Shown: positions 7,864 through 62,524 of the stretch, piece after piece
Layout: every line of letters starts with the position of its first letter
Numbering within the stretch: position 1 is the first letter of the stretch
Assembly: GCF_015351405.1 (NCBI RefSeq)
Contig: NZ_JADKMY010000003.1
Span: 62,001-126,000, forward strand
Length of the DNA: 64,000 nt
Direction of reading: 5' to 3'
Source: Corynebacterium suicordis DSM 45110
GTDB taxonomy: Bacteria; Actinomycetota; Actinomycetes; Mycobacteriales; Mycobacteriaceae
Made by a program: the position numbers and the translations under genes
The notes under the pieces: model-generated
What the model was told of the DNA's origin: nothing
Database searches by the model: none
Seen by the model: only the letters and a program-made list of their open reading frames with translations

Positions 7864-9291
7864 ATGGCCAGCAGCCCTGCTACCGGCAGTAGCGCCACCA
7901 GCGAAAACGGGGCATCCCGGGGAAGCAACCGGGCAACCGTGGCGGCCATCGGCCTGATGCTTTTCTCCATGTTCTTCGGCGCGGGCAACCTGATCTTCCC
8001 GCCTATCCTGGGAGTAGAATCTGGGGAGCACTTCACCCCGGCGATCATCGGCTTTCTCCTCACCGCTGTGGCTCTACCTGCATTGACGGTGATCGCCGTG
8101 GCCATTTCCGGTTCGGGAGTCAAGGATTTGGCCTCGCGCGCGGGAGTGGTGTTTGGCCTGGTGTTCTCCGTGGTGGCATATCTGTCCATCGGCAGCTTCT
8201 ATGCGCTCCCGCGCGCGGCGGCCATCGGCTATGAGTTGGGCATTGAGACCACGCTCAACCTCTCCGGAAGCTGGTGGCGCTTGCTGTTCACCAGCCTGTT
8301 CTTCGCGGTGACCTTTGCCATCGTGTTGGTGCCGGGCAAGGTGGCGGACACCCTGGGCAAGGTTTTGACACCGGTTCTGCTGATCCTGTTGGCAGTGCTG
8401 GCTGTGGTGACCATCTCTACGTTGGATAACCCACCTGCCCCGGCTACCCCGGAGTACGAGAACAACGCGCTGGTCAGCGGCGCTTTGCAGGGCTATTTCA
8501 CCATGGATTCCATCGCTGCCCTGGCCTTTGCCATCATCGTGGTTTCCACCTTTGGCTCCAAGGGCATCACCGAGCACCGCACCGTGGTGAAGTTGACTGC
8601 AATCTCCGCGGGAATCGCAGCGGTATTCCTCCTGTTTGTCTACGTGGCGCTGGGCGTGATGGGCACGCGGATGCCGGACAAGGGTAGCTACTCCGATGGT
8701 GCCGAACTGCTCTCCACCGCCTCCGAGCTTTCCCTCGGAACCGCAGGCAGCGTGGTCTTCTCCGGCGTGGTGCTGCTGGCTTGCTTGACCACCGCGGTGG
8801 GTCTGATTGCCGCCTCCGCGGCGTTCTTCAATGAGCTGGTTCCGCGGGTGGCTTATCGCACCTGGGCAATCATCTTCACGCTGATCGGATTGGTGATTGC
8901 CAACCTAGGCCTGGAGCGCATCCTCAGCATTTCTGGCCCCGTCATCGGCTTGATCTACCCTCCGGCCATCGCGCTGATCGCCATCACCGTGAGCCACCTG
9001 TTGATGCCAAAGCTCCGCCTCCCGTACACCTACCGCACCGCTGTATACACCGCTTTGGTGTTCTCCACGGTGGACTTCTTCCAGAAGCTGGGTTGGGAAT
9101 GGCCCGCGCTGAGCAACCTGCTCAGCCACATCCCCCTGTTCAATGAGGGGCTGGGCTGGCTGATCCCCACGGTGATCACTTCCCTAATCGCCGTGGCCGT
9201 TGACTTAACCCGTGGGCGCAAGCGGCGCGAGCCTCTGGTCTCCGGGGAAATCGATGAATCCCTGCACTCGGAAGTCTCCGCGAGCTCTTAA
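7864..9291 (+). CDS. brnQ: Branched-chain amino acid transporter, BrnQ/LIVCS family
   Basis: Sodium-coupled symporter for Ile, Leu and Val in the cytoplasmic membrane. The family signature LFSMFFGAGNLIFPP stands in the first membrane segment (residues about 36-50), and about twelve hydrophobic segments follow across 475 aa, the usual size. AAGGAG lies eight bases before the ATG at 7864. It stands alone between a terminator and a lipase gene. Substrate specificity is by family only; C. glutamicum BrnQ is the characterised relative. Confidence 0.9.
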   Translation: MASSPATGSSATSENGASRGSNRATVAAIGLMLFSMFFGAGNLIFPPILGVESGEHFTPAIIGFLLTAVALPALTVIAVAISGSGVKDLASRAGVVFGLVFSVVAYLSIGSFYALPRAAAIGYELGIETTLNLSGSWWRLLFTSLFFAVTFAIVLVPGKVADTLGKVLTPVLLILLAVLAVVTISTLDNPPAPATPEYENNALVSGALQGYFTMDSIAALAFAIIVVSTFGSKGITEHRTVVKLTAISAGIAAVFLLFVYVALGVMGTRMPDKGSYSDGAELLSTASELSLGTAGSVVFSGVVLLACLTTAVGLIAASAAFFNELVPRVAYRTWAIIFTLIGLVIANLGLERILSISGPVIGLIYPPAIALIAITVSHLLMPKLRLPYTYRTAVYTALVFSTVDFFQKLGWEWPALSNLLSHIPLFNEGLGWLIPTVITSLIAVAVDLTRGRKRREPLVSGEIDESLHSEVSASS

Positions 9292-9371
9292 GTTTTCCCA
9301 CCTGATGCGCCTATTCAGGGGTAAACCAGCAGTAGTTTTTGGTTTGGGGATAATTTCCCTCCCACAACTTT

Positions 9372-10922
9372 ATGCTGAGCCACATGACGTCTCCGGAACC
9401 TCGCTCTGCCCGCCGCGTGCCCCAGCACCGGATTGCCGCATTACTCGCATCCACCACGCTCAGCGTGACCAGTATTCTCGCTTCCGCCGGCCTGGCCAGC
9501 GCGCAAGATTCCCCACTCTACGATGGCGCGGAGCAGGCCAATGAGGCCAGCATCGAGGCCTCCACCGAGGGCTCCGCTCCCGGTAGCGCCTCCGGCGTGG
9601 TTCCCGGTTCCGTGGATCTGAACCAGGATGACTTCTACTCATCTATTCCCAAGAATGTGGAAGGCAAGCCAGGCCAGATCCTCAAGACCGCTCCTTCCAA
9701 CTTCGCGCTCGGCATCCCGCTGGTGGACTGGACAGGTTCCAGCGCCACTCGAGTTGCCTACGTGTCCACCGATGATGCTGGCAAGTCCATCCCCGTCACG
9801 GGTACTGTGTTGACCCCAACTGCTCCCTGGAAGGGCAAGGGTCCGCGCCCACTGCTGACCATCGCTCCGGGTACTCAAGGCTCCGGCGATGCCTGCGCCC
9901 CAGGAAAGCTCATGCCCTACGGCGTGGAGTACGAGGCACTCCCAGTGGCAGCGGCACTCGCCCGCGGATGGAACGTGGCGCTCACCGACCTGCATGGTCT
10001 GGGAACTGCACCTCAGCACAGCTACATGAACCGCACGCTGCAGGGCAATGCCACGCTGGACATGGCGCGCGCAGCCAATAACCTGCACCTGCCGGAAATC
10101 ACTGCAGAAACCCCCGTGGCCACCTTCGGTTACTCCCAGGGTGGCGGCGCCTCCGCGGCTGCGCTGGAACTGCAGCCCACCTATGCTCCGGATGTGAATC
10201 TGGTGACCGGTTACGCGGGTGGCATCCCCGCTGATCTCCATTCCGTGGCCAGGCAGGTGGACAAGGCCATGCTCACCGGCGTGCTGGGCTACACGGTCAA
10301 TGGCTTCCTGGAAACTAACCCGGAGATCGCTCCCATCGTGGAGAGCAAGCTCAATCCAAAGGGCCAGGAACTGCTGGCTAAGACCAAGGATGAGTGCATT
10401 CCCCAGTCCCTGGCCAACCACGCGTTCGTGGACACCCGCACCCTGACCAAGGATGGAAAGGCCCTGTGGGAGATCCTTCAGGAGGAGCCACTGAAGTCGC
10501 TGGTTGATCGCCAGCAGATCGGCAACCTGGCTCCCAAGGTGCCGGTTTACGTGGGCCACGGCACCAACGATGACAGCATCCCCGTGGAACAGTCCCGCGT
10601 CATGGCACACAAGTGGTGTGAGGCCGGTACCAAGGTGAACTACCAAGAGCACAACATTCCTATGGGCCCGCCGCTGACCAACCACGTCTTCCCCATGCTC
10701 ACGCACCTCAACCCCGCGATTGTGTGGCTGGAGCAGGTCATCAATGGGGAAAATTTCCCCACCACTCCTTGTGGGGAAATCCCCAATGAGCTGGACGTGA
10801 TGCCCACCGGTTCAGAAGCCGCTGGCAGCACGGCCGGTAGCGCCGAGGGAATGGCAGAAACCGTAGTCGATGGCGTCCCCGGTTCCCTGGGATCCGTCAC
10901 TGGCTCTCACCAGCCTTACTGA
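9372..10922 (+). CDS. Secreted lipase (fungal-type LIP family)
   Basis: Extracellular alpha/beta-hydrolase, probably releasing fatty acids from host lipids. An N-terminal Sec signal ends around residue 46 (hydrophobic stretch, then GLASAQDS). The nucleophile elbow is GYSQGGGAS (about residue 255); the acid and base of the triad are likely in HGTNDDSIP and NHVFP. 516 aa with a Gly/Ser-rich tail. This secretory-lipase family (PF03583) is frequent in lipid-requiring corynebacteria. ATG 9384 is an equally good start, since neither has a strong ribosome-binding site. The stop overlaps the convergent PepSY gene by seven bases. Confidence 0.85.
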   Translation: MLSHMTSPEPRSARRVPQHRIAALLASTTLSVTSILASAGLASAQDSPLYDGAEQANEASIEASTEGSAPGSASGVVPGSVDLNQDDFYSSIPKNVEGKPGQILKTAPSNFALGIPLVDWTGSSATRVAYVSTDDAGKSIPVTGTVLTPTAPWKGKGPRPLLTIAPGTQGSGDACAPGKLMPYGVEYEALPVAAALARGWNVALTDLHGLGTAPQHSYMNRTLQGNATLDMARAANNLHLPEITAETPVATFGYSQGGGASAAALELQPTYAPDVNLVTGYAGGIPADLHSVARQVDKAMLTGVLGYTVNGFLETNPEIAPIVESKLNPKGQELLAKTKDECIPQSLANHAFVDTRTLTKDGKALWEILQEEPLKSLVDRQQIGNLAPKVPVYVGHGTNDDSIPVEQSRVMAHKWCEAGTKVNYQEHNIPMGPPLTNHVFPMLTHLNPAIVWLEQVINGENFPTTPCGEIPNELDVMPTGSEAAGSTAGSAEGMAETVVDGVPGSLGSVTGSHQPY

Positions 10923-17352: not shown

Positions 17353-18798
17353 CTAGCTATCGATGAGATCCTCCTGGAAGTGCAGCTCCCCGGAATCCTG
17401 CGCGGTGCACACGATATTGCGCGCCAGCGGGATCTGGTGAGAAGCGCTCTCCAGGATGTGCATGAAATAACCCGCGGTATTCGGGATGGCGATGCAATCC
17501 CCGACTGCCACTCCCTCCGGGAATGTCATCCGCCGCCAAATGATCACCTCATCCTCGATGCAATACGCACCCACCAGGTAGGCCTGCAGCCCGCGGGTTT
17601 TCTCGCGCTGTTGCGCGGCCTGATTATCCTGCCCGGCGGACGATTCAGATGCGCTAGGCACCAGCAGTGGATCCAGCAAAATATCATCTGACGTGGTTTT
17701 ACACTGCGTGCGGTTCATCTCCAGCCCCACCAGATCCACCCCATCGCTGCGCTTCTTCACGAACGCCACCCGCGCCAGGATCACCCCGCCGCCATCCAAG
17801 ATGCTGCGCCCGGGCTCCAGGTGCAGGGCCAGACCCCGATCACGTAGCGCCTCAGCAGTGGTGCCGTATCCGGGAATCTCCCCTTGCAGCACCTGCTCCA
17901 GCCACACCCCCCGCGTGGGCGATTGGTGGAAGGGATAAGTGTTGCTCAGCGGGTGATTCTTCCAGGAATGCAGCGTGCTTTCCTCGCCCTGCGCACGCCG
18001 TTCGCGCTGCTCAGTGAACTCTTTCCATTCCTGAGCATCATCCAGATAGCTCATCGGCACTCCCCCACCCAGATCCACGAAGCGCGGGGTATGCCCCGCC
18101 TCTCGCAGCGCGTCCACCACCTGCAGGCAATCCGTCAGCACCGCCCGCCGATCAGCCTCCGCGTAGCCATGCAGGTGGGCATGCACTCCCACCACGTCCA
18201 GGTGCTCGTTCTGTTTTCCGACGCCACCCCTGACCCACTCACCTGCCACTTCACCGAAGCGAGTGGGTGGCAAACGCTCTGGATCCGGGGCAATACGCGG
18301 CGCCACGTGCGCCTGCACCGTGTGCGTTGCATCGCTCAGATACTCCGCAGCCTTGGCGATCCGCTGCAACTCCCCCAAGGAATCCACGGAGATGGTGACT
18401 CCCTGCGCGATGGCGAATTCCAGCAAAGCATCCGGCTTCACCGCGGCACTGAGGATGATGCTTTCCGCAGGAACTCCCTGCTCCAGCACCTGGCGGAGCT
18501 CCCGCTCGCTGGCCACGTCAATGCCGTGTCCTGCATTCTTGGCAGCTTCCACGAACCCCAATGATTTGTTTGCCTTGCGGGCGAAGAACACTCGCACCTG
18601 CACCCCATTGCGCGCTCCGGCATCCACCAGTTCCTGGGCATTGCGGGGCAGCACGGCGGGATACACCACGTTGACGGGTGAGGCGTACGTGCGCAGCAGA
18701 TCCTCGCACTGCACAGGGTCTGCCAACAAGGTGTCCATCCACGGCTCCAAGCGAGCGGTCAGGGACGGGGTTCCGTGCACGGGCAAAGGATGGGTCAT
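17353..18798 (-). CDS. Y4yA-like PLP-dependent decarboxylase (alanine-racemase fold)
   Basis: Fold-type III PLP enzyme of the DAP/ornithine decarboxylase group; the best match by memory is the Y4yA family, related in fold to SbnH, which decarboxylates a citryl-diaminopropionate intermediate in staphyloferrin B synthesis. PLP Lys lies in FFARKANKS (about residue 75); GVHAHLHG, the Gly-rich loop DLGGGVPMSY, LEPGRSI and the second-barrel CIEDE (Cys near 440) complete the active site. 481 aa with an insertion around 265-300 (EQRERRAQGEESTLHSWKNH). Start taken at ATG 18798. It is the last gene of the operon sbnA-like, FAD protein, this gene, starting 34 bases after the previous stop. Substrate unknown. 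Confidence 0.78.
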   Translation of the reverse strand: MTHPLPVHGTPSLTARLEPWMDTLLADPVQCEDLLRTYASPVNVVYPAVLPRNAQELVDAGARNGVQVRVFFARKANKSLGFVEAAKNAGHGIDVASERELRQVLEQGVPAESIILSAAVKPDALLEFAIAQGVTISVDSLGELQRIAKAAEYLSDATHTVQAHVAPRIAPDPERLPPTRFGEVAGEWVRGGVGKQNEHLDVVGVHAHLHGYAEADRRAVLTDCLQVVDALREAGHTPRFVDLGGGVPMSYLDDAQEWKEFTEQRERRAQGEESTLHSWKNHPLSNTYPFHQSPTRGVWLEQVLQGEIPGYGTTAEALRDRGLALHLEPGRSILDGGGVILARVAFVKKRSDGVDLVGLEMNRTQCKTTSDDILLDPLLVPSASESSAGQDNQAAQQREKTRGLQAYLVGAYCIEDEVIIWRRMTFPEGVAVGDCIAIPNTAGYFMHILESASHQIPLARNIVCTAQDSGELHFQEDLIDS

Positions 18799-18832
18799 GG
18801 TTGTTTCACTCTTTCGGGAGGTGTGGCGGTTT

Positions 18833-20323
18833 TTAAGTGTTAATGTGGTCTTGCTGATGCCGAGCAATGAAGTGTTCTGCCCAGTCCGGGATGGTGTGGT
18901 GCAGTGTTCTGCTGAGTGTATCCAGCCCCAGGACAGTGTCTTCCGTATCTCGCCCGATCACGCTCAAGCCAGGGGTTCCGGGAACGGCGCCGTCTTTCTC
19001 CACAGCTAGTCCGCGGCCGGTGCCGTCCGCACCGCGCCTGATCTGCGCATAACCCTGCTGGACCAGCTGATCCACCACCGTCCCAGGTACCACTCCCGGT
19101 GGTGCAATGGTGGCATCCACCACACCGATGACCTCTGCGGATTCGGGCTCTAGCCAATCATTGATGCGACCCGGTTTCCCCAGCCCATCAACGCGGAGCA
19201 AACCGGCCTGAGCCACGGCCAGGATCACGCCTGATGTCTCCGCTGGTGGTCCAAACGCCACGCGCTCCATGGTGTGGGACAAACGGGAAAACCCAGGCAG
19301 ATCATCGCGCCCGGAGAAGCTGGCACGTTCCACGATCCAGGGGTAAAGCCTGCGCCACGCTTCGCCGATCCCCCAGGGTGCCCCGGGCGGCTGCTTGCCG
19401 ATGGCCACGTCATAGCTTCGGCGCAGATCAGCCAGGGGATCCTCCATGCGGTTCTCGCCCCGAATTTCCGCCTGCAAATCCGCCGCCGGCACGCTCGCTC
19501 CCGCCGTACGCAGCAGGTCCCGCGCTGCCTCTACCAACACATTCTCCAGCTCGGACACGCTCTGGCATGCAAGAATGGCGCGCCCATAATCCTCCTCTGG
19601 CAACTGCACCCCATCCAAGGCCGAGCCAGGAACAGGCTTGACCTCCATGAACCGCCCAGAACGGTTAACCGGATGCAGCACCGGCTCCGCACCACTGGGT
19701 AGATACTCGGGAATATCCCCACCCCGCTGGACCGTTCCCCCGCGCCCCACGGTCAGTTCCAGCATCACGTCGATAAACGTCAGCGCGGTACCGCGCACGC
19801 CCACATGCGCCCCGACGGGGATCTGCGAGAGATCATCGATCACTCGCGGGCCACTCAGAGCTCCGGGCCAGGCTTGCGCATGCCCCGCGGTGACCAAGAC
19901 CTCGTCATAAGTCTCCCGCGAATCCCCCGTGACCTGCCAGCGTCCAGAAACCAGGCGCACATCCTGCACACGCTCCTGCACGTGCCGCACTTTCATCGTC
20001 TCCGGTAAACGCTCCAGCAGCCACTCCCACCAGGCCTGCAGGAACCCTCCAACTTCAGCGCGGGGTGGAAAATCACCAGCCTCCGGATGACACTCGGCAA
20101 AGTTTCCCATGGCAGTGGAAATTCCCGAACCACGCAGGTTCATCAGCCAATAATCCGGCTGCTCCAGCCGGTAGACGCGCCCTGCCCCGCAATGAGGTTC
20201 GGGCTCCCACACATCAATCTCCACCTCAGCGTGCGCCTTGGCTAGTTCCTCCACTGCCCAGAGCGCGCGCGGCCCACCGCCGATAATGCCCAGCCTCACC
20301 GGCGCAGTTTTCACTTGCCCCAT
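18833..20323 (-). CDS. FAD/NAD(P)-binding oxidoreductase-like protein
   Basis: Predicted flavoprotein of the FAD_NAD(P)-binding group (PF13454 type). Residues 8-25 hold the dinucleotide fold RLGIIGGGPRALWAVEEL, followed by EPEPHCGAGRVY; a second Rossmann-like segment begins near 160 (GVRGTALTFIDVMLEL). 496 aa. Start ATG 20323 lies inside the end of the sbnA-like gene (13-base overlap) with GAGG before it, so translation is probably coupled. In the staphyloferrin B pathway the SbnA product is oxidised by NAD-dependent SbnB; no SbnB is seen here, so this protein may take that step, which is my inference. It could instead hydroxylate an amine. Confidence 0.72.
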   Translation of the reverse strand: MGQVKTAPVRLGIIGGGPRALWAVEELAKAHAEVEIDVWEPEPHCGAGRVYRLEQPDYWLMNLRGSGISTAMGNFAECHPEAGDFPPRAEVGGFLQAWWEWLLERLPETMKVRHVQERVQDVRLVSGRWQVTGDSRETYDEVLVTAGHAQAWPGALSGPRVIDDLSQIPVGAHVGVRGTALTFIDVMLELTVGRGGTVQRGGDIPEYLPSGAEPVLHPVNRSGRFMEVKPVPGSALDGVQLPEEDYGRAILACQSVSELENVLVEAARDLLRTAGASVPAADLQAEIRGENRMEDPLADLRRSYDVAIGKQPPGAPWGIGEAWRRLYPWIVERASFSGRDDLPGFSRLSHTMERVAFGPPAETSGVILAVAQAGLLRVDGLGKPGRINDWLEPESAEVIGVVDATIAPPGVVPGTVVDQLVQQGYAQIRRGADGTGRGLAVEKDGAVPGTPGLSVIGRDTEDTVLGLDTLSRTLHHTIPDWAEHFIARHQQDHINT

Positions 20324-21345
20324 TCGCGCACCTCGCGCTCGCAATCCTCCGCGCTCATCCCGAAGGTATTCTCCACCCATTCATCGCTGTAGACGGTGTC
20401 CAGGTAGGCAGTTCCTGCGTCGTGCAAAATCACCACCACGGTGGCACCAGCGCCCAATTGCTGCTCCAGCTCCGCGGCATTCTCCTTCAGAGCTGCCATC
20501 ACGGCTCCCCCGGAAGCCCCGGGAAGAATGGCTTCGGCACGAGTGAGCGCGCGCGCCCCGATCACCGCCTTCTGGTCGGCGACACGGATTACTCGGTCAG
20601 GGGTGGCGTCGGCCGAAAGATCAGGCACCGCACCCGCCCCATAGCCGGGAAGCAAACGCTGCCCGCGCTGCCCGCCGAACAACACGGATCCCAGAGAATC
20701 CACGCCGATCACCAGGGTTTTTGCCTCTTCTCGACGCACACACCTCAAACATCCGCCAATCGTTCCCGTGGTGCTCATCGCCACCAGGAGAGCGTCCGGG
20801 GCGTGACCCAATTGTTGGATGATCTCGCTCATGGTTCCCTGGTCATGTGCCAAGAACGCCGCGCGGTTGCTGTACTGATCCAGGTTGATCGCGCCCTCGT
20901 CAGAGCTAATCAGCTCCGCGACCCGACGCTGCCGAGCGACCAGCCAGTCACCCGTCTCTGGATCCGGCTGTTCCACGTAATCAATGGTGGCGCCGAGGGC
21001 GCGCATGGTGGCCAAGGTGGTGTGGTTGGTCCGGGGGTCCACCACGCAGGTAAACCGCCACCCTCGGGTCACGGCCTGCCGGGCTAGGGCCACACCGAGG
21101 TTTCCAGAGCTGGATTCCACCAGGTGCACCGGACCTTCGGAGGGGATCTTCCCTTCCACAAGCGCCTGTTCAATCAGCGCGTTGGCGGTGCGATCCTTCG
21201 CCGAGCCTCCAGGGTTGAACTGTTCGAGTTTGGCCAGGATGCGCAGGTTAGTTTTCGGCAGTAGATGATGCAGTTCCACGAGCGGCGTGTGGCCGGTGAG
21301 CTCCAAGAAGCTGGAGGTGGTGGAGAAACCATTACGAGCGAGCAT
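20311..21345 (-). CDS. SbnA-like N-(2-amino-2-carboxyethyl)-L-glutamate synthase
   Basis: PLP enzyme of the cysteine synthase fold (type II). SbnA joins O-phosphoserine and glutamate, a step towards 2,3-diaminopropionate used in siderophores and other natural products. PLP Lys is in FNPGGSAKDRTAN (about residue 48), the substrate loop is ESSSGNLG, and the phosphate-binding loop is STTGTIGG. 344 aa, typical of SbnA and slightly longer than CysK. The cysteine-synthase substrate loop TSGNTG is replaced by SSGNLG, which favours SbnA over CysK. First gene of a three-gene operon with an FAD protein and a PLP decarboxylase. A hairpin lies 42-75 bases upstream. Confidence 0.82.
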   Translation of the reverse strand: MLARNGFSTTSSFLELTGHTPLVELHHLLPKTNLRILAKLEQFNPGGSAKDRTANALIEQALVEGKIPSEGPVHLVESSSGNLGVALARQAVTRGWRFTCVVDPRTNHTTLATMRALGATIDYVEQPDPETGDWLVARQRRVAELISSDEGAINLDQYSNRAAFLAHDQGTMSEIIQQLGHAPDALLVAMSTTGTIGGCLRCVRREEAKTLVIGVDSLGSVLFGGQRGQRLLPGYGAGAVPDLSADATPDRVIRVADQKAVIGARALTRAEAILPGASGGAVMAALKENAAELEQQLGAGATVVVILHDAGTAYLDTVYSDEWVENTFGMSAEDCEREVREWGK

Positions 21346-46371: not shown

Positions 46372-47715
46372 TTGTCCTCAACACATTCTCGCTACCAGAC
46401 CGTTGCTGAACTGCGGGAATTGTTCTCTTCCACTCCGGAATCCGAGCATGAGGCATTGTTCCGGGAGGTGGCCTCCGCGGGCTTTCCCCTCCTTGCTCCC
46501 GAGGGAACCCGCGCCACATTTTGTCTGTGGGAACCCGACGTATTTCCGGAACCGGTGCCGGATGATTGCGTGGCGCATCTCTGGGTGAATCGGTTGACGG
46601 ATAAGCAGTTCTATTCCCGCGGTTTAATGGCTCGCATGCCAGGAACTCAAGTGTGGGCGGTAGAGCTGGACGTGCCGCCGACTCTCATGGCGTCCTATGG
46701 TTTCGGGGTGGTGCCATCCCCCGAGACTGATTCCCCCGCCACCAGTGCCACCGCAACCGCTCACCACACCATCACCCGCTACCCGGATCCGCATGCCCGC
46801 GCAGGTGCTGCGCGCTTCACTCTGGAGGGCGAACCGGAACTCTCCGCGTTCTACGGACCGTTGAGCCCTGCCGCGCGCAGCAACTGGCTCACCAGAACCC
46901 ACGTGGGTGCTTCTCCCGTGTCAGAAACCACCACCTGCCCCGATGGGAAGAACCGCCCGATCCTCGCGTACCTGCCGGAGTATCATGAACAAGCGAACGC
47001 TGCCCTCCCCGTGGTTTTCCTGTTCGACGCCCCCACCTGGTTCCAGCAGTTCCACCTAGCAGACGTGCTGAACTGGGCGATCTCTGCCGGATTGTTGCCG
47101 CCCCTGTGCGTGGCCGGAGCGGGTGCGCTAGACCCCCGCGATCGCGCACACGTCTACGCCCATCTCCCCGAAACTCCCGAGACCAGCATCTTGGCGCATC
47201 TCTACTCGCAAGCGTTGGACTTTGCGCGGGAATCAGCCACCGAATCCGGGACTGCACTTAACACCTCTAACGGGGTGATCATCGCTGGTCAGAGCATGGG
47301 CGGGTTGGGCGCACTCCAGCTGGACCGTCACCTCGCCCGCGCGGGAACTCCACCCCGCGCGCTAGTCATTTCCTCCCCATCCGTGTGGTGGTCCCCGAAA
47401 CCCGGCGCGATCCCGGCGAACCTGGGCCAGGAAGAAGTGGATTGGGCAGCCCGCGAGTATTTCCTGGAGCCACACAGCTCCCCCAGCCACGCTCCCCTAT
47501 TTATCGACGCCGGCGCCCGCGAAGGCCTGCTCGTCTCCAAGTCTTTCCAGTTGTTGGCTGCCGCGGCGGGTAATGGGCGCGACACCCATTTCCGGGTGAT
47601 GGATGGCGGGCATGATCAGCTGTGGTGGGCATTTTCCTTGGTCGAGCGGCTCGGCATGATCCTCAACGCGTCGACAGCCTCCGCGAACCCGGAACAAACC
47701 AACACCCCCATTTGA
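46372..47715 (+). CDS. fes: Fes-type siderophore esterase
   Basis: Predicted cytosolic hydrolase of ferric catecholate trilactones, releasing iron after uptake. N-terminal Fes-type domain (FPLLAPEGTRATFCLWE, HLWVNRLTDKQFYSRGLMAR), C-terminal esterase_D domain with nucleophile GQSMGGLGAL (Ser near residue 306) and His in DGGHDQLWW (near 411). 447 aa, close to E. coli Fes plus about 40. TTG 46372 is the start: GAAAGG lies about eleven bases before it and no ATG is near. Stands just before the entA-like gene. The intergenic side shows no DtxR box of its own. Confidence 0.85.
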   Translation: MSSTHSRYQTVAELRELFSSTPESEHEALFREVASAGFPLLAPEGTRATFCLWEPDVFPEPVPDDCVAHLWVNRLTDKQFYSRGLMARMPGTQVWAVELDVPPTLMASYGFGVVPSPETDSPATSATATAHHTITRYPDPHARAGAARFTLEGEPELSAFYGPLSPAARSNWLTRTHVGASPVSETTTCPDGKNRPILAYLPEYHEQANAALPVVFLFDAPTWFQQFHLADVLNWAISAGLLPPLCVAGAGALDPRDRAHVYAHLPETPETSILAHLYSQALDFARESATESGTALNTSNGVIIAGQSMGGLGALQLDRHLARAGTPPRALVISSPSVWWSPKPGAIPANLGQEEVDWAAREYFLEPHSSPSHAPLFIDAGAREGLLVSKSFQLLAAAAGNGRDTHFRVMDGGHDQLWWAFSLVERLGMILNASTASANPEQTNTPI

Positions 47716-47716
47716 G

Positions 47717-47735
47717 TTAGCTTAGGCTAACTTAA
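47717..47735 (+). promoter_or_regulatory. DtxR-like iron operator before entA
   Basis: TTAGCTTAGGCTAACTTAA matches the DtxR consensus TTAGGTTAGCCTAACCTAA at 16 of 19 positions, counted by eye. A TATAGT hexamer lies eleven bases on (47746-47751). This places entA, the carrier protein and the synthetase under iron control. Confidence 0.75.
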
Positions 47736-47793
47736 AACTGTTAGGTATAGTCGTCCTGTCATGCCAACGCGCAGCAGGAAGGATTCACCTATC

Positions 47794-48504
47794 GTGGCTC
47801 ACACCATTGTCACCGGCGCCACCGGCGGGATCGGCAGCGCGTGCGTCTCCGCGCTCCGCGATCTTGGGCATCAGGTTTCCGCTTGGGACCTCCCCGAAGT
47901 CGACGTGACCGACCAAGCAGCCGTACACGTGGCCCTAGAAAAGGCCATCGTCGAACACGGCCCCATCAGCGGATTGGTGCATTGCGCTGGAGTGTTGGCG
48001 GCCGATGAAGCGCTGCACCCGCAGCTCTCCACCCTGCAGCACAGCATGGAGGTGAACTTCTTCGGCGTGGTCAATGTATGCGCTGCAGTGGCGCAACACA
48101 TGGTGGAGCGCTGCGGGGGATCCATCGTTACCGTCACCTCGAATGCGCATTCCACCCCGCGGCAGGGCATGGCCGCCTATGGCGCATCAAAGGCAGCCGC
48201 GGCTTCGTGGATGCGCACGCTGGCGCTGGAAACCGCGGGGCACGGCGTGCGCTGCAACACCGTCTCCCCAGGATCCACCGAAACTCCCATGCTCACCGGC
48301 ATGTTCGAACCCAAGCAAACTGAGCAAGCCTTCCGCCAGGTCATTGCCGGAACCCCGGAGACTTTCCGCCTGGGCATCCCCCTGGGCCGCATCGCCGATC
48401 CAGCGGCAGTTGCAGAGACCTGCCTGTTCCTCCTCTCTGATGCCGCCCGCCACATCACCATGCATGACCTGCGCGTGGATGGCGGCGCCACTTTTGACTC
48501 TTAA
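47794..48504 (+). CDS. entA: 2,3-dihydro-2,3-dihydroxybenzoate dehydrogenase (EntA type)
   Basis: SDR enzyme that oxidises 2,3-dihydro-DHB to 2,3-dihydroxybenzoate, the catechol unit of enterobactin-like siderophores. NAD loop TGATGGIGSA at the start, SNAHSTPRQGMAAYGASKAA holds the catalytic Ser, Tyr and Lys, and the C-terminus has the usual DLRVDGGATF. GTG 47794 is preferred: AGGAAGGA lies at 47776-47783. ATG 47761 would put the start directly behind the -10 and add 11 residues. 236 aa. EntA rather than a general SDR because of the siderophore neighbours. Confidence 0.83.
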   Translation: MAHTIVTGATGGIGSACVSALRDLGHQVSAWDLPEVDVTDQAAVHVALEKAIVEHGPISGLVHCAGVLAADEALHPQLSTLQHSMEVNFFGVVNVCAAVAQHMVERCGGSIVTVTSNAHSTPRQGMAAYGASKAAAASWMRTLALETAGHGVRCNTVSPGSTETPMLTGMFEPKQTEQAFRQVIAGTPETFRLGIPLGRIADPAAVAETCLFLLSDAARHITMHDLRVDGGATFDS

Positions 48505-48533
48505 ACCACCCACCCATCACCCCGAAGGAAAAC

Positions 48534-48794
48534 ATGACTGAAGAAAACGCCGTAAACAACCACACGAACGAGCCACAATTGACGCGCGAAAGTATGAAGG
48601 CTGGCGTCGGAAAAATCATGAATATCCCCGCCGATCAGGTGGAGGAAAACGAATCCCTGGTGGATCAGGGTCTTGATTCCCTCCGGCTGGTGACGCTGAT
48701 CGAGGAATGGCGCACCGATGGCGCGGACATCGATTTTCATGCGTTTTTGGAGGCGGACACGCTGAACGAGTGGTACGAACTGCTGCACATCTAG
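48534..48794 (+). CDS. Stand-alone aryl carrier protein
   Basis: Small acyl-carrier-like protein (86 aa) with the phosphopantetheine site DQGLDSLRL (Ser49). Resembles the ArCP domain of EntB without its isochorismatase half. It would hold dihydroxybenzoate after activation by an EntE-type ligase and hand it to the condensation domain of the next gene. GAAGGA precedes ATG; the gene starts 29 bases after entA and stops two bases before the synthetase. The separate isochorismatase and ligase are not in the window. Confidence 0.82.
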   Translation: MTEENAVNNHTNEPQLTRESMKAGVGKIMNIPADQVEENESLVDQGLDSLRLVTLIEEWRTDGADIDFHAFLEADTLNEWYELLHI

Positions 48795-48796
48795 CC

Positions 48797-51700
48797 ATGA
48801 ACTCCTCCCCCATTTTCGAGCTCTCCGCAGGCCAGCGAAGCATCTGGTTCGGCCAATCCACCTGTCCCGGCACCGCCACATACCAATGCGGTGAGTTGAT
48901 CCGTTTCCCTTCGGGGAGCGACGTCGATGCGGCGCGGTTGGCGCGAATCATTCGGCGCTGCATTTCTCAACTGCCGGTTTTCACGGCGGAGTATGTGGAT
49001 GGGGGAGTGTCAGGACCGATCGCCCGGCGCGGTGATGAGGATGCTCGCATCTCGGTTGAGGTGCTGGATTCTGCGCAGATCGTTGGTGCAGGCGGAGACC
49101 TGGACCCGGATGCGGACCTGGATGCCGAGGTGGAGTTGGCGGCGCGGAGGTTCATCGCTCGGCCCACCGGATCTGAACTGCGGGGAGCCGACCTGACCGC
49201 GCATCAGCTCATCACGCACGCCGATGGAAGGCTCTGGTGGGTGGCGCGATTCCATCACATCGCTGGTGATGGTTTCTCCTTCAATGCCCTGCTCACGTGG
49301 ATCACTCAGTGTTACACAGCAGAGAGCCGGGGCGAGGAGCTGCCGGAAAGCCCATTCACTTTGCCGGAGCCTGCTGATCGCGCGGTGTCACCTGAAACGG
49401 TGGAATTTTGGCGCGAGCACACGCTCCCAGAACCAGGGATTTCTCTGCTTCCGGATGTGGCTGATTCTCCCGATCCCGTGGATGCAGACGTGGTGGTGTC
49501 CGGTGCAGCACTTCTGCCAGCTGATGCGCGCAAACAACTACGCACCTTGCTGCAGGGGCTGAACTCCGTGGCTGAATCTACTGCTCCAGGCTCGGAACAC
49601 CCCATTGAACACCCGACTGAGCTGGATCTAGTGATGCTGCTGACCAGTAGGTATATCGCATCCTTGAGTAACGCCGAAGAGCTCAGCATCGGCATCCCGT
49701 TGATGAACCGCACCTTTGGGCGAAAGGTGGTGGAGTGCGGTCCGGCCGTGAGCGTGATGCCGCTGTGCGTGAATTTTGCGGCCGCTTCAAGCGCTGCTGC
49801 GCTGCTCCAAGATTTGAGCCGTGAGCTGCGCGCCATTCGCGAACACAGTTCCATTGGGGTGGATCAGCTGCGCGCTCTCACGCAGCGCACCGATCCCACG
49901 CTGAGCGTGACCGGCCCGCACGTTAATTTCCGCCCGTTCACACCTGCGTTCAGGTGCGGTTCGGCAACGGGCACGTTGTCCACACTGTCTGTGGGTCCGC
50001 TGGAGGATATCGAGATCATCTTCCAATCCGCCCGCGGTGGCGCGCTGGAGATCATGGTCATGGCACGCGGTGTGCATCACAGCTCCGCCGTGCAAGCCCA
50101 TGCGGATCGGCTGGCCCATGTGCTCACCCAAGCCGCGGAGCTCACTGCCCAATCTGAATTCGATCCCGCAGCGGAAGATTTTGGCACCGTACAATGCGTG
50201 CTTCCCGAGGAATTCCAGCAGGTCATCAACGATTTCAATGCCACTGAGCATGAATTGCCCGGCCACCGAACCCTGCGAGAAATGCTGCTGTCCGAACATG
50301 CGCGCATCACGGATCACGGCTCGGATCGCAGTTCAGAACTCGCACAGCAACCACTGTTGATCTTCCATGACCCGGAAACAGACACTTCGGCCCACCTGAA
50401 CCATGACGAGCTATGGCAGCTAGCTACTTCTGGAGCTCAACAACTCAAGGATTGCGGTATCGGCCCCGGCGATGTGGTGGCCCTGCACCTGCGGCGCAGC
50501 CCAGAATTCATCATTGCGGTGGCTGCCACCATTTTGGCCGGTGCGGCATGGGTTCCGATTGACCCGGACATCCCGGTTGCTCGTCGCAGGAGCATGCTGA
50601 CCAGGTGCAACGCGCGCCTCGCGGTCTCCGCATACCCTAATGCGGAACTGGAACTACCCACCATCCTCACCAGCGACGATGGGCATCTCACCCCCTGGAT
50701 TCTCAGTTCCACTCAGCCAGAAGATCACGCTCCCTCGCGCGCAGTAGAAGACACCCAAGGCATCGATGTGGCCTATGTCCTGTTCACCTCGGGTTCCACC
50801 GGCACACCCAAGGCAGTGGCCGTGCCTCAGGAAGGAATCGTGAACCGCCTCGAATGGATGTGCGCGTATTACGATCTGCCCGCCCAGAGGATGCTGCACA
50901 AAACTCCCCTCACATTCGATGTCTCCGTGTGGGAGTACCTCTTACCGCTCACGCATTCCATCCCCACGGTCATCGCCCCGCCACAGGCACACCTTGATCT
51001 GCAGCACATCGAACGCCTCTTGCGGGATCATCGCGTGAACTTCTGTCATTTCGTGCCCTCGGCTCTGGCGGCCTTCCTCCCGCAGGTGTGTGATCTCCCA
51101 GACCTGCAGCAGATCATCACGTCCGGGGAGGCACTGCCCGCTCACTTGGCGCAGCAAACCCGCGAGGCGTTGGACGTGGAGGTGCACAATCTCTACGGCC
51201 CCACCGAGGCCTCCATCGACGTCAGCGCGCACACCGTCGACGATTCCGATCAGGTCATTCCCATCGGCACTCCTGTGTGGAACACCGCCCTGTATGTGCT
51301 GGATCGGTGGAATCAGCCCGTCCCCGCGCAGTTCCCCGGCATGCTGCATATCGCTGGCCGTCAAGTTGCCCTGGGGTACATGGGCCAGCCCGAACTCACT
51401 GCGGAAAAGTTCATCGCAGATCCCTTCCCGCCTGCAGAATCCACTCCCGGTTCCGCACCGCAGCGCTGCTACAACACCGGTGACATTGCACGTTGGAGGC
51501 CATCGGGAACCCTGGATTACCTTGGGCGCAGCGATGGCCAGGTGAAGCTTCGCGGCCAGCGCCTCGAGCTGGGCGAAGTCACCTCTGTTGTGGAATCCGC
51601 GCCGGGAATCGCTCGCGCCGCCACGGTCATCCGCGAGGTTGCCGGCAGCCCGGCACTGGTTGCGTATGTGGTTCTCGCGCCAGAAAACCCGCAAACAGAA

Positions 51701-52924
51701 AACCCGCAGAACCTCTCGGCCACCATCAAGCAGTGGTGCGCGAAACACCTCCCGGATTACATGGTCCCTTCGTTCGTAGTCCCGCTCGAATCCATGCCGC
51801 TGACCGTCAACGGCAAGCTGAATGCCACAGAACTCCCCGCTCCCGAGCTCCCCACGCTGGGTAGTTCATCAGCGCAGCACTCCCCGCATCCAAGCACCCC
51901 AGCGAGCATTTATCTGCCGCAAGTCATCTCAGCCTGGCGTCGAATATTGGAACTACCAGCCGAAACAAACAGCGAACACCTGGCCCATGCCAACTTCTTC
52001 GAGCTCGGCGGCAACTCACTCTCCGCCGTGCTGCTGGCCGCGGAGATCCCCAACGTGACCGTGGCGGATGTCTTCGCCCACCCCACTCCCGTGGCCCTCG
52101 CGCAGCGGGCAGAACAACCTCGCACCACAGGTTCGGATCTTGGCCCGGCGTATGCGGAGTTGCTCACGTTGCGCCCGCATCGCCACGGCACTCCCGTGGT
52201 GTGTGTCCATCCCGCGGGCGGCCTGGGCTGGGTGTACGCCGGTTTGCTCCCGCACCTGCACAGCCCCGATGTGGGCGTGTACGTGGTGCAAACCCCGGCT
52301 TTTTCCGGCGGTGAACTACCCCGTTCCATCGATGCTGCCGTGCAGCGGGCCGCGACGCTCATCGAGGATCTACTCACCGAAACAGGTTGCGACACCGTGG
52401 ACGTGGTGGGTTGGTCCATCGGCGGGGTCCTCGCGCAGCATCTCGCGGCAACTCGGCCGTCCGTGGTGGCTCGCCTCCTTCTTCTCGACGCCTACCCCGC
52501 CGCAGCGTGGCGCCAACTTCCCATGCCTAACCAGCAGGAGATGTGGCGCGCGGTTCTGGACATGGCGGGAATCTCCACGGTGGAGGTGGAGGAATCCACG
52601 CTGGACCAGGAGGCAATCGCCCAGCTACTCGCGGATTCTCAGGGCGTGTATGCGCACCTACCCAGCTCCGTGCTCAAGGCGCTGCCAGAGGTGGTGGAGG
52701 CCAGCTCTCGAGCCATGCGGGAGCACACCACGCAACCATCGCAGGTCCCCACCTGGCATTTCACCGCCCTGCAGAAACCGGACGTGCAGAGCACCGCGCT
52801 ACAGGCGAACAAATGGGCCGACGTGCTGGGAGAATGCACGGAATTCCTTGCGCTGGACGTGACCCACCCGGGGATGGTGGGCCCGCTCGGATTCCAGGTC
52901 GTGGCAGAGATCCTCCGGGATTAA
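48797..52924 (+). CDS. EntF-like non-ribosomal peptide synthetase (C-A-T-TE)
   Basis: Assembles a catechol-amino acid siderophore. Domains in order: condensation (residues 1-450, HHIAGDG at about 152), adenylation (500-1010; FTSGSTGTPK at 662, NLYGPTEAS, YNTGDIARW, GRSDGQVKLRGQRLELGE, NGKLN), carrier (FFELGGNSLSAV, Ser about 1072) and thioesterase (1110-1375; GWSIGGVLAQ, Ser about 1205). Hand alignment with EntF gives the specificity code DVWHISLIDK, against DVWHFSLVDK for serine, so serine is expected. 1375 aa, as EntF. ATG 48797, two bases after the carrier gene, has no clear ribosome-binding site and is probably coupled. A trilactone product like enterobactin or a shorter linear one are both possible. 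Confidence 0.88.
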   Translation: MNSSPIFELSAGQRSIWFGQSTCPGTATYQCGELIRFPSGSDVDAARLARIIRRCISQLPVFTAEYVDGGVSGPIARRGDEDARISVEVLDSAQIVGAGGDLDPDADLDAEVELAARRFIARPTGSELRGADLTAHQLITHADGRLWWVARFHHIAGDGFSFNALLTWITQCYTAESRGEELPESPFTLPEPADRAVSPETVEFWREHTLPEPGISLLPDVADSPDPVDADVVVSGAALLPADARKQLRTLLQGLNSVAESTAPGSEHPIEHPTELDLVMLLTSRYIASLSNAEELSIGIPLMNRTFGRKVVECGPAVSVMPLCVNFAAASSAAALLQDLSRELRAIREHSSIGVDQLRALTQRTDPTLSVTGPHVNFRPFTPAFRCGSATGTLSTLSVGPLEDIEIIFQSARGGALEIMVMARGVHHSSAVQAHADRLAHVLTQAAELTAQSEFDPAAEDFGTVQCVLPEEFQQVINDFNATEHELPGHRTLREMLLSEHARITDHGSDRSSELAQQPLLIFHDPETDTSAHLNHDELWQLATSGAQQLKDCGIGPGDVVALHLRRSPEFIIAVAATILAGAAWVPIDPDIPVARRRSMLTRCNARLAVSAYPNAELELPTILTSDDGHLTPWILSSTQPEDHAPSRAVEDTQGIDVAYVLFTSGSTGTPKAVAVPQEGIVNRLEWMCAYYDLPAQRMLHKTPLTFDVSVWEYLLPLTHSIPTVIAPPQAHLDLQHIERLLRDHRVNFCHFVPSALAAFLPQVCDLPDLQQIITSGEALPAHLAQQTREALDVEVHNLYGPTEASIDVSAHTVDDSDQVIPIGTPVWNTALYVLDRWNQPVPAQFPGMLHIAGRQVALGYMGQPELTAEKFIADPFPPAESTPGSAPQRCYNTGDIARWRPSGTLDYLGRSDGQVKLRGQRLELGEVTSVVESAPGIARAATVIREVAGSPALVAYVVLAPENPQTENPQNLSATIKQWCAKHLPDYMVPSFVVPLESMPLTVNGKLNATELPAPELPTLGSSSAQHSPHPSTPASIYLPQVISAWRRILELPAETNSEHLAHANFFELGGNSLSAVLLAAEIPNVTVADVFAHPTPVALAQRAEQPRTTGSDLGPAYAELLTLRPHRHGTPVVCVHPAGGLGWVYAGLLPHLHSPDVGVYVVQTPAFSGGELPRSIDAAVQRAATLIEDLLTETGCDTVDVVGWSIGGVLAQHLAATRPSVVARLLLLDAYPAAAWRQLPMPNQQEMWRAVLDMAGISTVEVEESTLDQEAIAQLLADSQGVYAHLPSSVLKALPEVVEASSRAMREHTTQPSQVPTWHFTALQKPDVQSTALQANKWADVLGECTEFLALDVTHPGMVGPLGFQVVAEILRD

Positions 52925-52931
52925 ACCCCGA

Positions 52932-53750
52932 TTAGCTTTCCTCATCCACCGGCACCACGATGGGCCGCCCGGAACGGGGATCGTGCAACAGCTCGCAGCG
53001 CAGGCCGTAGACATCCTCCATGAGTTCGGGCGTCACCACGTCGTTGACCTGCCCTTCCGCCACGATCGCCCCCTCCTTCATCATCACCAAATTGGTGGCA
53101 TAGCGAAACGCGAGCGTGAGCTCATGCAACACCGCGACCACCGTGAAGCCTTCGCGCTGGAGCGCCCGCGCCAGGTTCAACACCTCAACCTGGTGGGCGA
53201 TATCCAGGTACGTGGTGGGCTCATCCAGCAACACGATCGGCGCATCCTGAGCCAGCACCAAAGAGATCCACACGCGCTGCCGCTGCCCACCGGAAAGTTC
53301 GGTGACATATCGCTGCGCCAGCTCCTCCACGTGCGCCCGAGCCATGGCTTCCTTGACCTTGCGCTCGTCCTCGGAACTCCACTGCTTGAAGAATCCCTGG
53401 TGCGGATACCGACCCCGCCCCACCAAGTCCTCCACCACGATCCCCTCAGGCGCCACCGGTGATTGCGGCAGCAAGCTCATTTGCCGCGCCACCTCCTTGG
53501 GCGGCAGCTCCCCCACCGGTTTCCCGTCCAGCAGCACCTCCCCGCGCACGGGCTCCACCATCCGAGAAAGCGCCTTGAGCAGCGTGGACTTGCCACACGC
53601 GTTCGGTCCCACGATCACCGTGAATTCTCCATCGGGGATCTGCAGACTCAGGTCCTCGATGATCACCTTGTTCCCGTAGGCCACGCAAATGTTCTTCGCC
53701 TGCAGTCGATTTTTTTCGACGCCAAGCTCGTCATTGTTCATAGTTTTCAT
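52932..53750 (-). CDS. Siderophore ABC transporter ATP-binding protein (FecE/FepC type)
   Basis: Energises ferric siderophore import. Walker A GPNACGKST, Q-loop LLPQSP, ABC signature LSGGQRQR, Walker B IVLLDEPTTYLD and the switch His are complete. ATG 53750 overlaps the permease stop (ATGA), which decides the start; a longer open frame is less likely. 272 aa. The first 20 residues contain GVEKNR, coded by one of the longest copies of the recurrent DNA word. The stop is seven bases from the convergent synthetase stop. Confidence 0.93.
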   Translation of the reverse strand: MKTMNNDELGVEKNRLQAKNICVAYGNKVIIEDLSLQIPDGEFTVIVGPNACGKSTLLKALSRMVEPVRGEVLLDGKPVGELPPKEVARQMSLLPQSPVAPEGIVVEDLVGRGRYPHQGFFKQWSSEDERKVKEAMARAHVEELAQRYVTELSGGQRQRVWISLVLAQDAPIVLLDEPTTYLDIAHQVEVLNLARALQREGFTVVAVLHELTLAFRYATNLVMMKEGAIVAEGQVNDVVTPELMEDVYGLRCELLHDPRSGRPIVVPVDEES

Positions 53751-54802
53751 CTTTTTCTGCGCCATTCCATGGCCAGGAGCCACACTAGATACACGCCACC
53801 GACAGCTCCTGTGACTACCCCCACTGGTAGTTGCGTGGGTGCGAAAAGTCGCTGAGCAATGGCGTCGGAAAGAAGAACCAACGTTGCCCCCATGAGGGCA
53901 GCAAGTCCCAAGCCCACCCCGGAGGTGCGGCTGAGGGTGCGGGCTAATTGCGGAGCGGCCAGTGCCACGAAGGCAATGGGGCCGGCGGCGGCCACGCTGA
54001 TCGCCACGAGGATGACCCCCATAGCGATGAGCTGAAGCCGGCGTCTACCCACGGGAACGCCCAGGCCCACGGCCATCTCGGCACCGGTCATCATGATGCT
54101 CAGGGAGCGCGCTAACACCAGGGCCAACGGGGAGAGCACCGCGATGGCGATGGCGAAGGTGGTGGTTTCGCCCCAGGTGGTGGCGTTGAATGAACCCACC
54201 AACCACTGTTGCGCGGTCTGCGCGGCGGAAAGCGATGCCTTCACGATGAGCAGCTGGTTGATGCCCTGCAGCACCGCAGCGATACCGATTCCCACCAGCA
54301 CGAACCTGGTGCCGGACATGCCCGCGCCCGCGGAAAGTCCGTACACCAGTGCGCCCGTGGCGAAGCCGCCGATGATGGCTGCCAATGCGATGGCAGCGGG
54401 GCCGCCGTTGAACACGATGATCTGCAGCAACGCGCCCGCGGCCGCACCCGTGGTGAAGCCGGTGATGTCCGGGGATCCCAGCGGGTTGGCGGTGAGCTGT
54501 TGGAAGATGCAGCCGGACATGCCCAGTGCCGCGCCCACCAGAATTGCCAGCACCACGCGCGGGGCGCGGAGCTCTTGGACGAAGTAGATAGCCAACGGAT
54601 TGGAGTGGGTACCGATGACGGCACGCACCACGTCCGCGGGGCTCAGTAGGTAATCACCGAGCGTCATGATGAACACCGCAGCGGTGGCCATGATCGCGGT
54701 GAGGATGGCTCCGACCAGCAGAGATCGACGCTCCACGCGGAGCGTGAATGGGCCGAGCCGCAGCACCACGTGCCGGGACTGCATCGCTTTGTGAGATGTC
54801 AT
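53747..54802 (-). CDS. FecCD-family siderophore permease
   Basis: Second membrane subunit of the importer. About nine to ten hydrophobic helices (LVGAILTAIMATAAVFIMTL onward), the family motif LRAPRVVLAILVGAALGMSGCIFQ and VAAAGPIAFVALAAPQLAR. 351 aa. Both ends overlap neighbours by four bases (ATGA), indicating coupled translation with the other permease and the ATPase. Confidence 0.93.
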   Translation of the reverse strand: MTSHKAMQSRHVVLRLGPFTLRVERRSLLVGAILTAIMATAAVFIMTLGDYLLSPADVVRAVIGTHSNPLAIYFVQELRAPRVVLAILVGAALGMSGCIFQQLTANPLGSPDITGFTTGAAAGALLQIIVFNGGPAAIALAAIIGGFATGALVYGLSAGAGMSGTRFVLVGIGIAAVLQGINQLLIVKASLSAAQTAQQWLVGSFNATTWGETTTFAIAIAVLSPLALVLARSLSIMMTGAEMAVGLGVPVGRRRLQLIAMGVILVAISVAAAGPIAFVALAAPQLARTLSRTSGVGLGLAALMGATLVLLSDAIAQRLFAPTQLPVGVVTGAVGGVYLVWLLAMEWRRKR

Positions 54803-55803: not shown

Positions 55804-55826
55804 AAATGGGTGTGTCTGTTGTCCCG

Positions 55827-56915: not shown

Positions 56916-56968
56916 CGAAATCTCACTAACTATTGCGAAGGAAAAGCGGAGGTCTAGAAACAAGCGAA

Positions 56969-58807: not shown

Positions 58808-58813
58808 GGGGTT

Positions 58814-59839: not shown

Positions 59840-59908
59840 GGCAAATTCTCAACATTCTTGTTAGGTGTGCGGCCTGAAATTTCCTGCGGGTTATCCATCG
59901 GGGATGCC

Positions 59909-59962
59909 CACTTGGTGTGTCCACTGGTGTGTTCACTGGGGATACTCACTGGGGATGTCCAC
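59909..59962. repeat. Degenerate 13-base tandem repeat
   Basis: CACT starts recur at 59909, 59922, 59934, 59947 and CAC at 59960 (steps 13, 12, 13, 13) in units such as CACTGGTGTGTT and CACTGGGGATACT. It lies 70-120 bases before the start of the binding-protein gene, within its presumed leader. Nothing else is seen in the 281-base gap apart from the hairpin at 60071-60106. Confidence 0.65.
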
Positions 59963-60070
59963 AAGGCCGTACTCGCCAAATCCACTGCTACCCCGATGGA
60001 AGCGAACTCCGCCTTTGCACAAAGGTGGAGGTGTGGATGGTTGACGAGCACGGGCTTGCGGGCACCCCAC

Positions 60071-60106
60071 CCCTTCCTCACCGTTCAGGTGTCGGTGAAG
60101 GAAGGG
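60071..60106 (-). terminator. Hairpin after the propeller gene
   Basis: CCCTTCC and GGAAGGG with inner CACCG and CGGTG form a 12-pair stem broken by a small bulge. It lies 15-50 bases past the stop of the propeller gene. There is no U-run, so it may limit rather than end transcription into the importer genes. Confidence 0.5.
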
Positions 60107-60120
60107 AAAGGTACTCGGTA

Positions 60121-62328: not shown

Positions 62329-62488
62329 GGGAGGTGTTGATCCTTGGGGAAAACGAACGCGATTCTCCTAGGAGGTGAATCGTCGCCCTGATGACGCTTC
62401 TCTCGGGGTTGAGACGCAGGAAACGGCAATGAGGTTGGTGAGCTGGTGTTTCTTTCCGTGTGTGCGGCACGGTTCAGCATCAGGAGTG

Positions 62489-62517: not shown

Positions 62518-62523
62518 GCCTAA
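62505..62523 (-). promoter_or_regulatory. DtxR-like operator 1
   Basis: TTAGGTTAGTCAAGCCTAA matches TTAGGTTAGCCTAACCTAA at 16 of 19 positions (by eye) and covers the -35 of the promoter. Confidence 0.75.
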
Positions 62524-62524
62524 T

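What the first reader, a model, noticed from the sequence alone, without database searches (positions are those of the whole stretch)
17353..21345. SbnA / FAD protein / Y4yA-like decarboxylase operon
Seen: three overlapping or closely spaced leftward genes for an SbnA-type PLP enzyme, a flavoprotein and an alanine-racemase-fold PLP decarboxylase, with no SbnB, no NIS synthetase, no NRPS and no transporter nearby. Known: SbnA and SbnB together make 2,3-diaminopropionate, and SbnH (same fold class as Y4yA) decarboxylates a citryl-DAP intermediate. Inference: the flavoprotein replaces SbnB, and the operon makes a diaminopropionate-based small molecule of unknown kind. It may feed the synthetase at 48797 or act as a metallophore itself. 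Its separation from the 46-62 kb locus argues for an independent product.
Basis: partly seen in the sequence, partly recalled or inferred. Interest (0 to 1): 0.7.

Follow-up and report, generated by a model that had tools for sequence, protein, structure and literature searches.

The report
Three-gene pathway with an N-oxygenase
Three adjacent genes, kept together in the same order in bacteria from several phyla, look like a compact assembly line that joins phosphoserine to an amino acid, oxidises a nitrogen atom and removes a carboxyl group, making a small molecule whose identity is not known.

Summary
In detail: an SbnA-type PLP enzyme, a flavoprotein and a Y4yA-type PLP decarboxylase form a leftward operon (21345-17353) in a Corynebacterium genome. 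The trio is a real unit. A scan of public genomes with the flavoprotein alone gave 76 loci; 69 carry all three genes in this order, across several phyla. The flavoprotein and decarboxylase are one fused ORF in 48 of 108 loci checked (the loci partly overlap). No other neighbour is general, but a serine-kinase-like gene sits directly upstream in three loci. With the conserved SbnA residues R132/Y152/S185, this points to O-phosphoserine as a substrate.

The interpretation needs one main correction. The flavoprotein is not an SbnB-like dehydrogenase. It has the fold and catalytic centre of FzmM, the aspartate N-hydroxylase (Foldseek E 5e-27; next best 8e-11), with a partly different substrate site. 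The pathway therefore probably makes an N-oxidised diaminopropionate or ethylenediamine-type compound. The genome has no SbnB-type and no NIS gene. The trio has no DtxR or Zur box and is not associated with the catecholate locus or with NIS genes in 201 genomes, so feeding the nearby synthetase is not supported. The product and the order of steps are unproven. I found no published description of the trio.

The parts
20311..21345 (-). SbnA-type fold-II PLP enzyme (predicted O-phosphoserine-dependent beta-replacement synthase). R138, Y158, S191 correspond to SbnA R132, Y152, S185.
18833..20323 (-). FAD/NADPH N-oxygenase of the FzmM (aspartate N-hydroxylase) type, PF13454. Likely start ATG 20323 (longest ORF starts at 20380). 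Catalytic Asn = N81 in longest-ORF numbering.
17353..18798 (-). Y4yA-type fold-III PLP decarboxylase. Likely start ATG 18798 (longest ORF starts TTG 18867). Invariant K98/K101, H231, E351, C436, D457 in longest-ORF numbering.

Best explanation
The operon is a self-contained three-enzyme cassette for an N-oxidised small molecule. Step 1 (inferred from family and conserved residues): the SbnA-type enzyme replaces the phosphate of O-phosphoserine with the amino group of an amino acid, most likely glutamate as in SbnA, giving an N-(2-amino-2-carboxyethyl)-amino acid. Step 2 (class of chemistry inferred from fold and catalytic residue; substrate unknown): the flavoprotein, an FzmM-type N-hydroxylating monooxygenase, uses NADPH and O2 to oxidise a nitrogen of this adduct to a hydroxylamine, nitrone, oxime or nitro level. 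Step 3 (inferred): the Y4yA-type enzyme removes the alpha-carboxylate of the diaminopropionate part, giving an N-oxidised ethylenediamine-type product. The fused flavoprotein-decarboxylase proteins suggest that steps 2 and 3 are consecutive.
For: Same three genes, same order, same strand in 69 of 76 loci found with the flavoprotein alone, from Alphaproteobacteria, Planctomycetes, Acidobacteriota, Gemmatimonadota and several actinobacterial classes. Pairwise distances of the three proteins correlate (r 0.73-0.80) and trees are broadly alike, with Rothia nested in Corynebacterium in all three. Flavoprotein and decarboxylase are one ORF in 48 of 108 loci. SerK/SbnI-like (ParB_N) gene overlaps or abuts the SbnA start in L107, L108, L109, related to solved free serine kinase at E 6e-9. 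SbnA R132/Y152/S185 are kept. Flavoprotein model pLDDT 93; top PDB match FzmM, E 5e-27, TM 0.76, next hit 8e-11; profile comparison with FzmM-like proteins probability 100, E 3e-55 over nearly the full length. Catalytic Asn62 = N81 in all rows; R13 is Arg/Lys; R266 is Lys in all rows. Decarboxylase keeps its invariant Lys, His, Glu, Cys and Asp.
Against: No product or activity is known. The flavoprotein alone is kept under purifying selection (dN/dS 0.08-0.11) in three corynebacteria that lost the other two genes, so its substrate may not be the SbnA product. Aspartate-binding parts of FzmM (helix RxxRNxxR, loop with R577) are changed or missing, so N-oxygenation is inferred from scaffold and catalytic centre only. 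The SbnA hit is below NCBI's equivalog cut-off. No exporter or immunity gene is conserved.
Confidence: 0.5

Rival explanations
1. One reading: the flavoprotein does SbnB's job, oxidatively cleaving the SbnA adduct (ACEGA) into diaminopropionate and 2-oxoglutarate; the decarboxylase then acts on diaminopropionate or a derivative.
For: It sits where SbnB would be expected, and the genome has no SbnB family member. In sister loci the middle role is taken by an ornithine-cyclodeaminase gene. An N-oxygenase could in principle cleave the adduct through a nitrone.
Against: The nearest solved relative by sequence and by fold is an N-hydroxylating monooxygenase, not an amine oxidase or dehydrogenase. 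142 of 201 congeneric genomes have PF02423 members, including many with the trio, so the lack of SbnB-like genes is not general.
Confidence: 0.15
2. The N-oxygenase acts first, on a free acidic amino acid, and the SbnA-type enzyme then couples the N-oxidised amino acid to phosphoserine; the decarboxylase finishes.
For: FzmM acts on free aspartate (PMC10404684). The flavoprotein survives alone under selection in three corynebacteria and occurs alone in Bowdeniella nasicola.
Against: Gene order and the flavoprotein-decarboxylase fusion fit later action better. FzmM's aspartate-binding residues are not all kept.
Confidence: 0.2
3. The trio makes an aminopolycarboxylate metallophore (EDDS- or rhizobactin-like), using transporters elsewhere in the genome.
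For: Type-B relatives pair SbnA and Y4yA with SbnB-like, MATE and FecCD-type ABC genes. EDDS is known to be a zincophore made without NRPS or NIS enzymes (PMC4993170).
Against: No DtxR or Zur site upstream: mean best match is near background, while good DtxR matches occur at 47717 and 62505 in the same window. No conserved transporter. No association with NIS genes (8/27 vs 74/174, p 0.29) or with the catecholate locus.
Confidence: 0.12
4. The first enzyme is an ordinary sulfhydrylase and the three genes are unrelated catabolic enzymes.
For: The PALP fold is shared with cysteine synthases; cysK/cysM models score 150-195 bits.
Against: SbnA scores far higher (330 bits) and its selectivity residues are kept. 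Conservation of the trio across phyla and the fusions exclude unrelated genes.
Confidence: 0.03

Closest known systems
Staphyloferrin B precursor enzymes SbnA/SbnB and decarboxylase SbnH (with SbnI serine kinase)
   Same: SbnA-type phosphoserine enzyme with R132/Y152/S185 kept; a fold-III PLP decarboxylase; serine-kinase-like neighbour in some loci.
   Different: No SbnB, no NIS synthetases, no transporters; an N-oxygenase in the middle, often fused to the decarboxylase.
FzmM/CreE aspartate N-hydroxylases (aspartate-nitrosuccinate pathway) and the related PcxL
   Same: Class B FAD/NADPH fold, catalytic Asn, near full-length profile match.
   Different: No conserved CreD-type lyase neighbour seen; arginine helix and R577 loop changed or absent; joined to SbnA and a decarboxylase; about 500 aa instead of 600.
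Type-B loci: OCD - Y4yA - SbnA - MATE - FecCD ABC (Agrobacterium, Aureimonas, some Corynebacterium)
   Same: Same two PLP enzyme families (about 24-38% identity).
   Different: SbnB-like gene instead of the N-oxygenase; own exporter and importer; the SbnA homologue lacks Y152 and S185.
L-alanosine pathway (diaminopropionate plus N-oxidation; literature only)
   Same: Combines a diaminopropionate unit with N-oxidation and CreE-type enzymes (PMC11705231, PMC7347517).
   Different: Uses a carrier-protein-bound substrate, a different hydroxylase (AlnG) and further genes not present here.

Membership tests
SbnA (2,3-diaminopropionate biosynthesis, TIGR03945) | Score above the curated equivalog cut-off | tested here: not met
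   329.7 bits vs cut-off 349.95
SbnA (2,3-diaminopropionate biosynthesis, TIGR03945) | Phosphoserine-selective residues R132, Y152, S185 | tested here: met
   R138, Y158, S191 in the window; kept in most type-A proteins
SbnA (2,3-diaminopropionate biosynthesis, TIGR03945) | Uses L-glutamate to make ACEGA | not testable with these tools
   needs an assay
SbnB / ornithine cyclodeaminase (role of the second gene) | PF02423 fold | tested here: not met
   Flavoprotein is PF13454; no PF02423 gene in the genome
FzmM-type N-hydroxylating monooxygenase | Overall fold and family profile | tested here: met
   Foldseek E 5e-27, TM 0.76; profile E 5e-57; hhalign E 3e-55
FzmM-type N-hydroxylating monooxygenase | Catalytic Asn62 over flavin C4a | tested here: met
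   N81 in all 47 trio rows and in the four FAD-only proteins
L-aspartate N-hydroxylase (substrate-specific) | Entry-chamber residues R13, R266, R409/R412/N413/R416, R577 | tested here: not met
   R13 is R/K and R266 is K, but only one helix Arg is kept (register uncertain), Asn413 is lost and the R577 loop is absent
L-aspartate N-hydroxylase (substrate-specific) | CreD-type nitrosuccinate lyase next to it | tested here: inconclusive
   No conserved neighbour beyond the trio by clustering; no CreD model was searched
Y4yA/SbnH-type fold-III PLP decarboxylase | PF02784 domain with PLP Lys, Cys and Asp/Glu residues | tested here: met
Staphyloferrin B-type NIS siderophore pathway | IucA/IucC synthetases | tested here: not met
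   none in the genome; no association with the trio in 201 genomes
EDDS-type zincophore pathway | Zur-controlled promoter | tested here: not met
   Zur-like score near background across Corynebacterium loci; a consensus scan only
EDDS-type zincophore pathway | Homology to the aes genes | not tested
   aes gene sequences were not identified in the libraries at hand

The most novel reading that the evidence does not exclude
A previously undescribed, widely transferred three-enzyme pathway makes a new class of N-oxidised (hydroxylamine, oxime, nitrone or nitro) diaminopropionate or ethylenediamine metabolite, in human-associated corynebacteria as well as in marine and soil bacteria, using bifunctional N-oxygenase-decarboxylase proteins in many species.
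Probability: 0.4. Interest if true: 0.78.

Novelty: new variant of a known kind. Interest (0 to 1): 0.62.

Why it matters
Pathways built on phosphoserine-derived diaminopropionate are known mainly as suppliers to siderophore or peptide assembly lines. Here three enzymes appear to suffice, with an N-oxygenase of the nitrosuccinate-forming type in place of SbnB. About 40% of the sampled Corynebacterium species carry it, including skin and oral species, so a small N-O compound may be common in human-associated microbiota without being known. The three-gene size, the natural fusions and clear substrate candidates make it directly testable in vitro.

Tried and rejected
Viral contigs with the SbnA query: no relatives. 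Literature on Y4yA, SbnA plus FAD, EDDS genes and diaminopropionate plus N-oxygenase: no description of the trio; the library lacks most subscription papers. Feeding the catecholate NRPS at 48707-52924: rejected as unsupported. Feeding a NIS synthetase: no association. Iron or zinc control: no DtxR or Zur box. Sigma-70-type promoter scan: nothing on the coding strand; several upstream regions look leaderless, which I did not test. My first residue mapping FzmM R577 to R491 was wrong: R577 lies in a loop these proteins lack. The NGR234 region fetched to see the original y4yA context did not contain it.

Full report
Observation. The window lies in a Corynebacterium genome: a same-genus relative, G072, carries a contig of the same length and locus as the public C. 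dentalis record, L148. Three leftward genes are present as described: an SbnA-like PLP enzyme 20311-21345, a flavoprotein 18833-20380 and a PLP decarboxylase 17353-18867. Likely true starts are ATG 20323 for the flavoprotein and ATG 18798 for the decarboxylase. Neighbours are an acyl-CoA ligase, two acyl-CoA dehydrogenases and lysyl-tRNA synthetase. These do not recur at most other trio loci, although the closely related C. dentalis shares them.

A unit, not three genes by chance. In 201 sampled genomes of the genus, 82 have a full-length type-A decarboxylase and five have broken ones. All 34 type-A loci that I read carry all three genes in order, four of them in broken or decaying copies. With an alignment of the flavoprotein only, a scan of 84,980 species genomes gave 76 loci. 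69 hold SbnA, flavoprotein and decarboxylase in that order, 2 are cut by contig ends, and 5 lack the partners. Hosts include Sulfitobacter, Oceaniglobus and Rhizobiaceae; Gimesia, Blastopirellula and Adhaeretor; an acidobacterium; Gemmatimonadetes; Nitriliruptoraceae; Patulibacter; Kocuria, Rothia, Micropruina, Tessaracoccus, Brachybacterium, Tomitella and many Corynebacterium. The trio also sits on Sulfitobacter and Tsukamurella plasmids. The three protein trees are broadly congruent, with distance correlations of 0.73-0.80. The last two genes are one ORF in 48 of 108 loci; some genomes appear in both locus sets, so this is a count of loci, not species.

What accompanies it. No other gene is shared widely. 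In two Rhizobiaceae and one Sulfitobacter a small ParB_N-type gene directly precedes SbnA. It matches the solved free serine kinase (E 6e-9) and, weakly, SbnI, and it resembles the gene found next to the type-B loci. That fits supply of O-phosphoserine. The window's genome has no SbnB-family and no NIS gene.

First enzyme. The best solved relative is S. aureus SbnA (E 5e-67). The residues named as responsible for phosphoserine selectivity, R132, Y152 and S185 (PMC12414870), are R138, Y158 and S191 here and are kept in most type-A proteins. Most type-B homologues have His and Gly at the last two positions. The score is slightly below NCBI's equivalog cut-off, so I call it SbnA-type.

Second enzyme. 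This is the main correction. The only clear solved relative by sequence is 8CP2/8CP5 (profile E 5e-40 and 5e-57), the L-aspartate N-hydroxylase FzmM of Streptomyces sp. V2 (PMC10404684). A confident model (pLDDT 93) has FzmM as best PDB match at E 5e-27, with the next hit at 8e-11. hhalign against Streptomyces FzmM-like proteins gives E 3e-55 over nearly the full length. The catalytic Asn62 is N81, invariant; R13 is Arg or Lys; R266 is an invariant Lys. The aspartate-binding helix keeps one Arg only, and the loop with R577 is missing. So it shares scaffold and catalytic centre but probably not the substrate. It is expected to form N-O bonds, not to act like the NAD-dependent SbnB.

Third enzyme. 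It is a fold-III PLP decarboxylase related to diaminopimelate and ornithine decarboxylases, with the expected invariant residues. Its substrate is unknown.

Role of metals and siderophores. Good DtxR matches occur in the catecholate locus (47717, 17/19; 62505, 16/19), but upstream of the trio both DtxR and Zur scores are near background in Corynebacterium. The trio is not associated with the catecholate marker (8/22 vs 74/179, p 0.82) nor with NIS genes (8/27 vs 74/174, p 0.29). These tests ignore phylogeny.

Proposed mechanism. Phosphoserine plus an amino acid (Glu likely) gives an N-(2-amino-2-carboxyethyl)-amino acid; the N-oxygenase oxidises a nitrogen; the decarboxylase removes the alpha-carboxylate. 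Shown here: families, fold, residues, linkage and fusion. Inferred: substrates, order and product. An observation that does not fit easily is the flavoprotein kept alone, with dN/dS 0.08-0.11, in three related corynebacteria that lost the other two genes, and alone in Bowdeniella. It suggests that the enzyme can use a substrate not made by SbnA, perhaps a free amino acid.

Novelty. The enzyme families are known and the trio is visible in public annotation as 'sbnA, FAD/NAD(P)-binding protein, Y4yA family'. I found no paper on it in the library at hand. I rate it a new variant of a known kind with an unknown product.

Noticed in passing
L168 7407-8858, L169 7740-9437, L177 7830-9434, L140 7625-9208: The flavoprotein gene occurs without SbnA and decarboxylase in three related Corynebacterium species (dN/dS about 0.1 among them) and in Bowdeniella nasicola, suggesting an independent function.
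   Followed up: partly
L052-L057 (Corynebacterium), L074-L077 (M. avium pMAH135, Aureimonas, Agrobacterium plasmids): A second kind of locus pairs Y4yA and SbnA homologues with an SbnB-like ornithine cyclodeaminase, often a MATE exporter and a FecCD-type ABC importer: a candidate NIS-free metallophore pathway. On an Agrobacterium pTi (L077) it lies beside phosphoenolpyruvate mutase and CDP-alcohol genes.
   Followed up: partly
window 46372-62525: Catecholate siderophore-type locus (enterochelin esterase-like, DHB dehydrogenase, one-module NRPS, Fe-enterobactin-type ABC transporter) with strong DtxR-box matches at 47717 and 62505.
   Followed up: partly
L058/L059 (G016) and L060 (G049): Two trio copies about 10 kb apart, the second one truncated and decaying; other species carry broken trio genes, pointing to frequent gain and loss.
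   Followed up: no
L072 8502-9938: In the Tsukamurella plasmid pTpau01 the middle gene is annotated only as a 240-aa hypothetical protein (9219-9938), but the open frame covers the whole flavoprotein from 8502.
   Followed up: no
L111 11116-11862, L112 11206-11751: Two planctomycete trio loci have a gene with a DUF3891 match right after the decarboxylase; meaning unknown.
   Followed up: no
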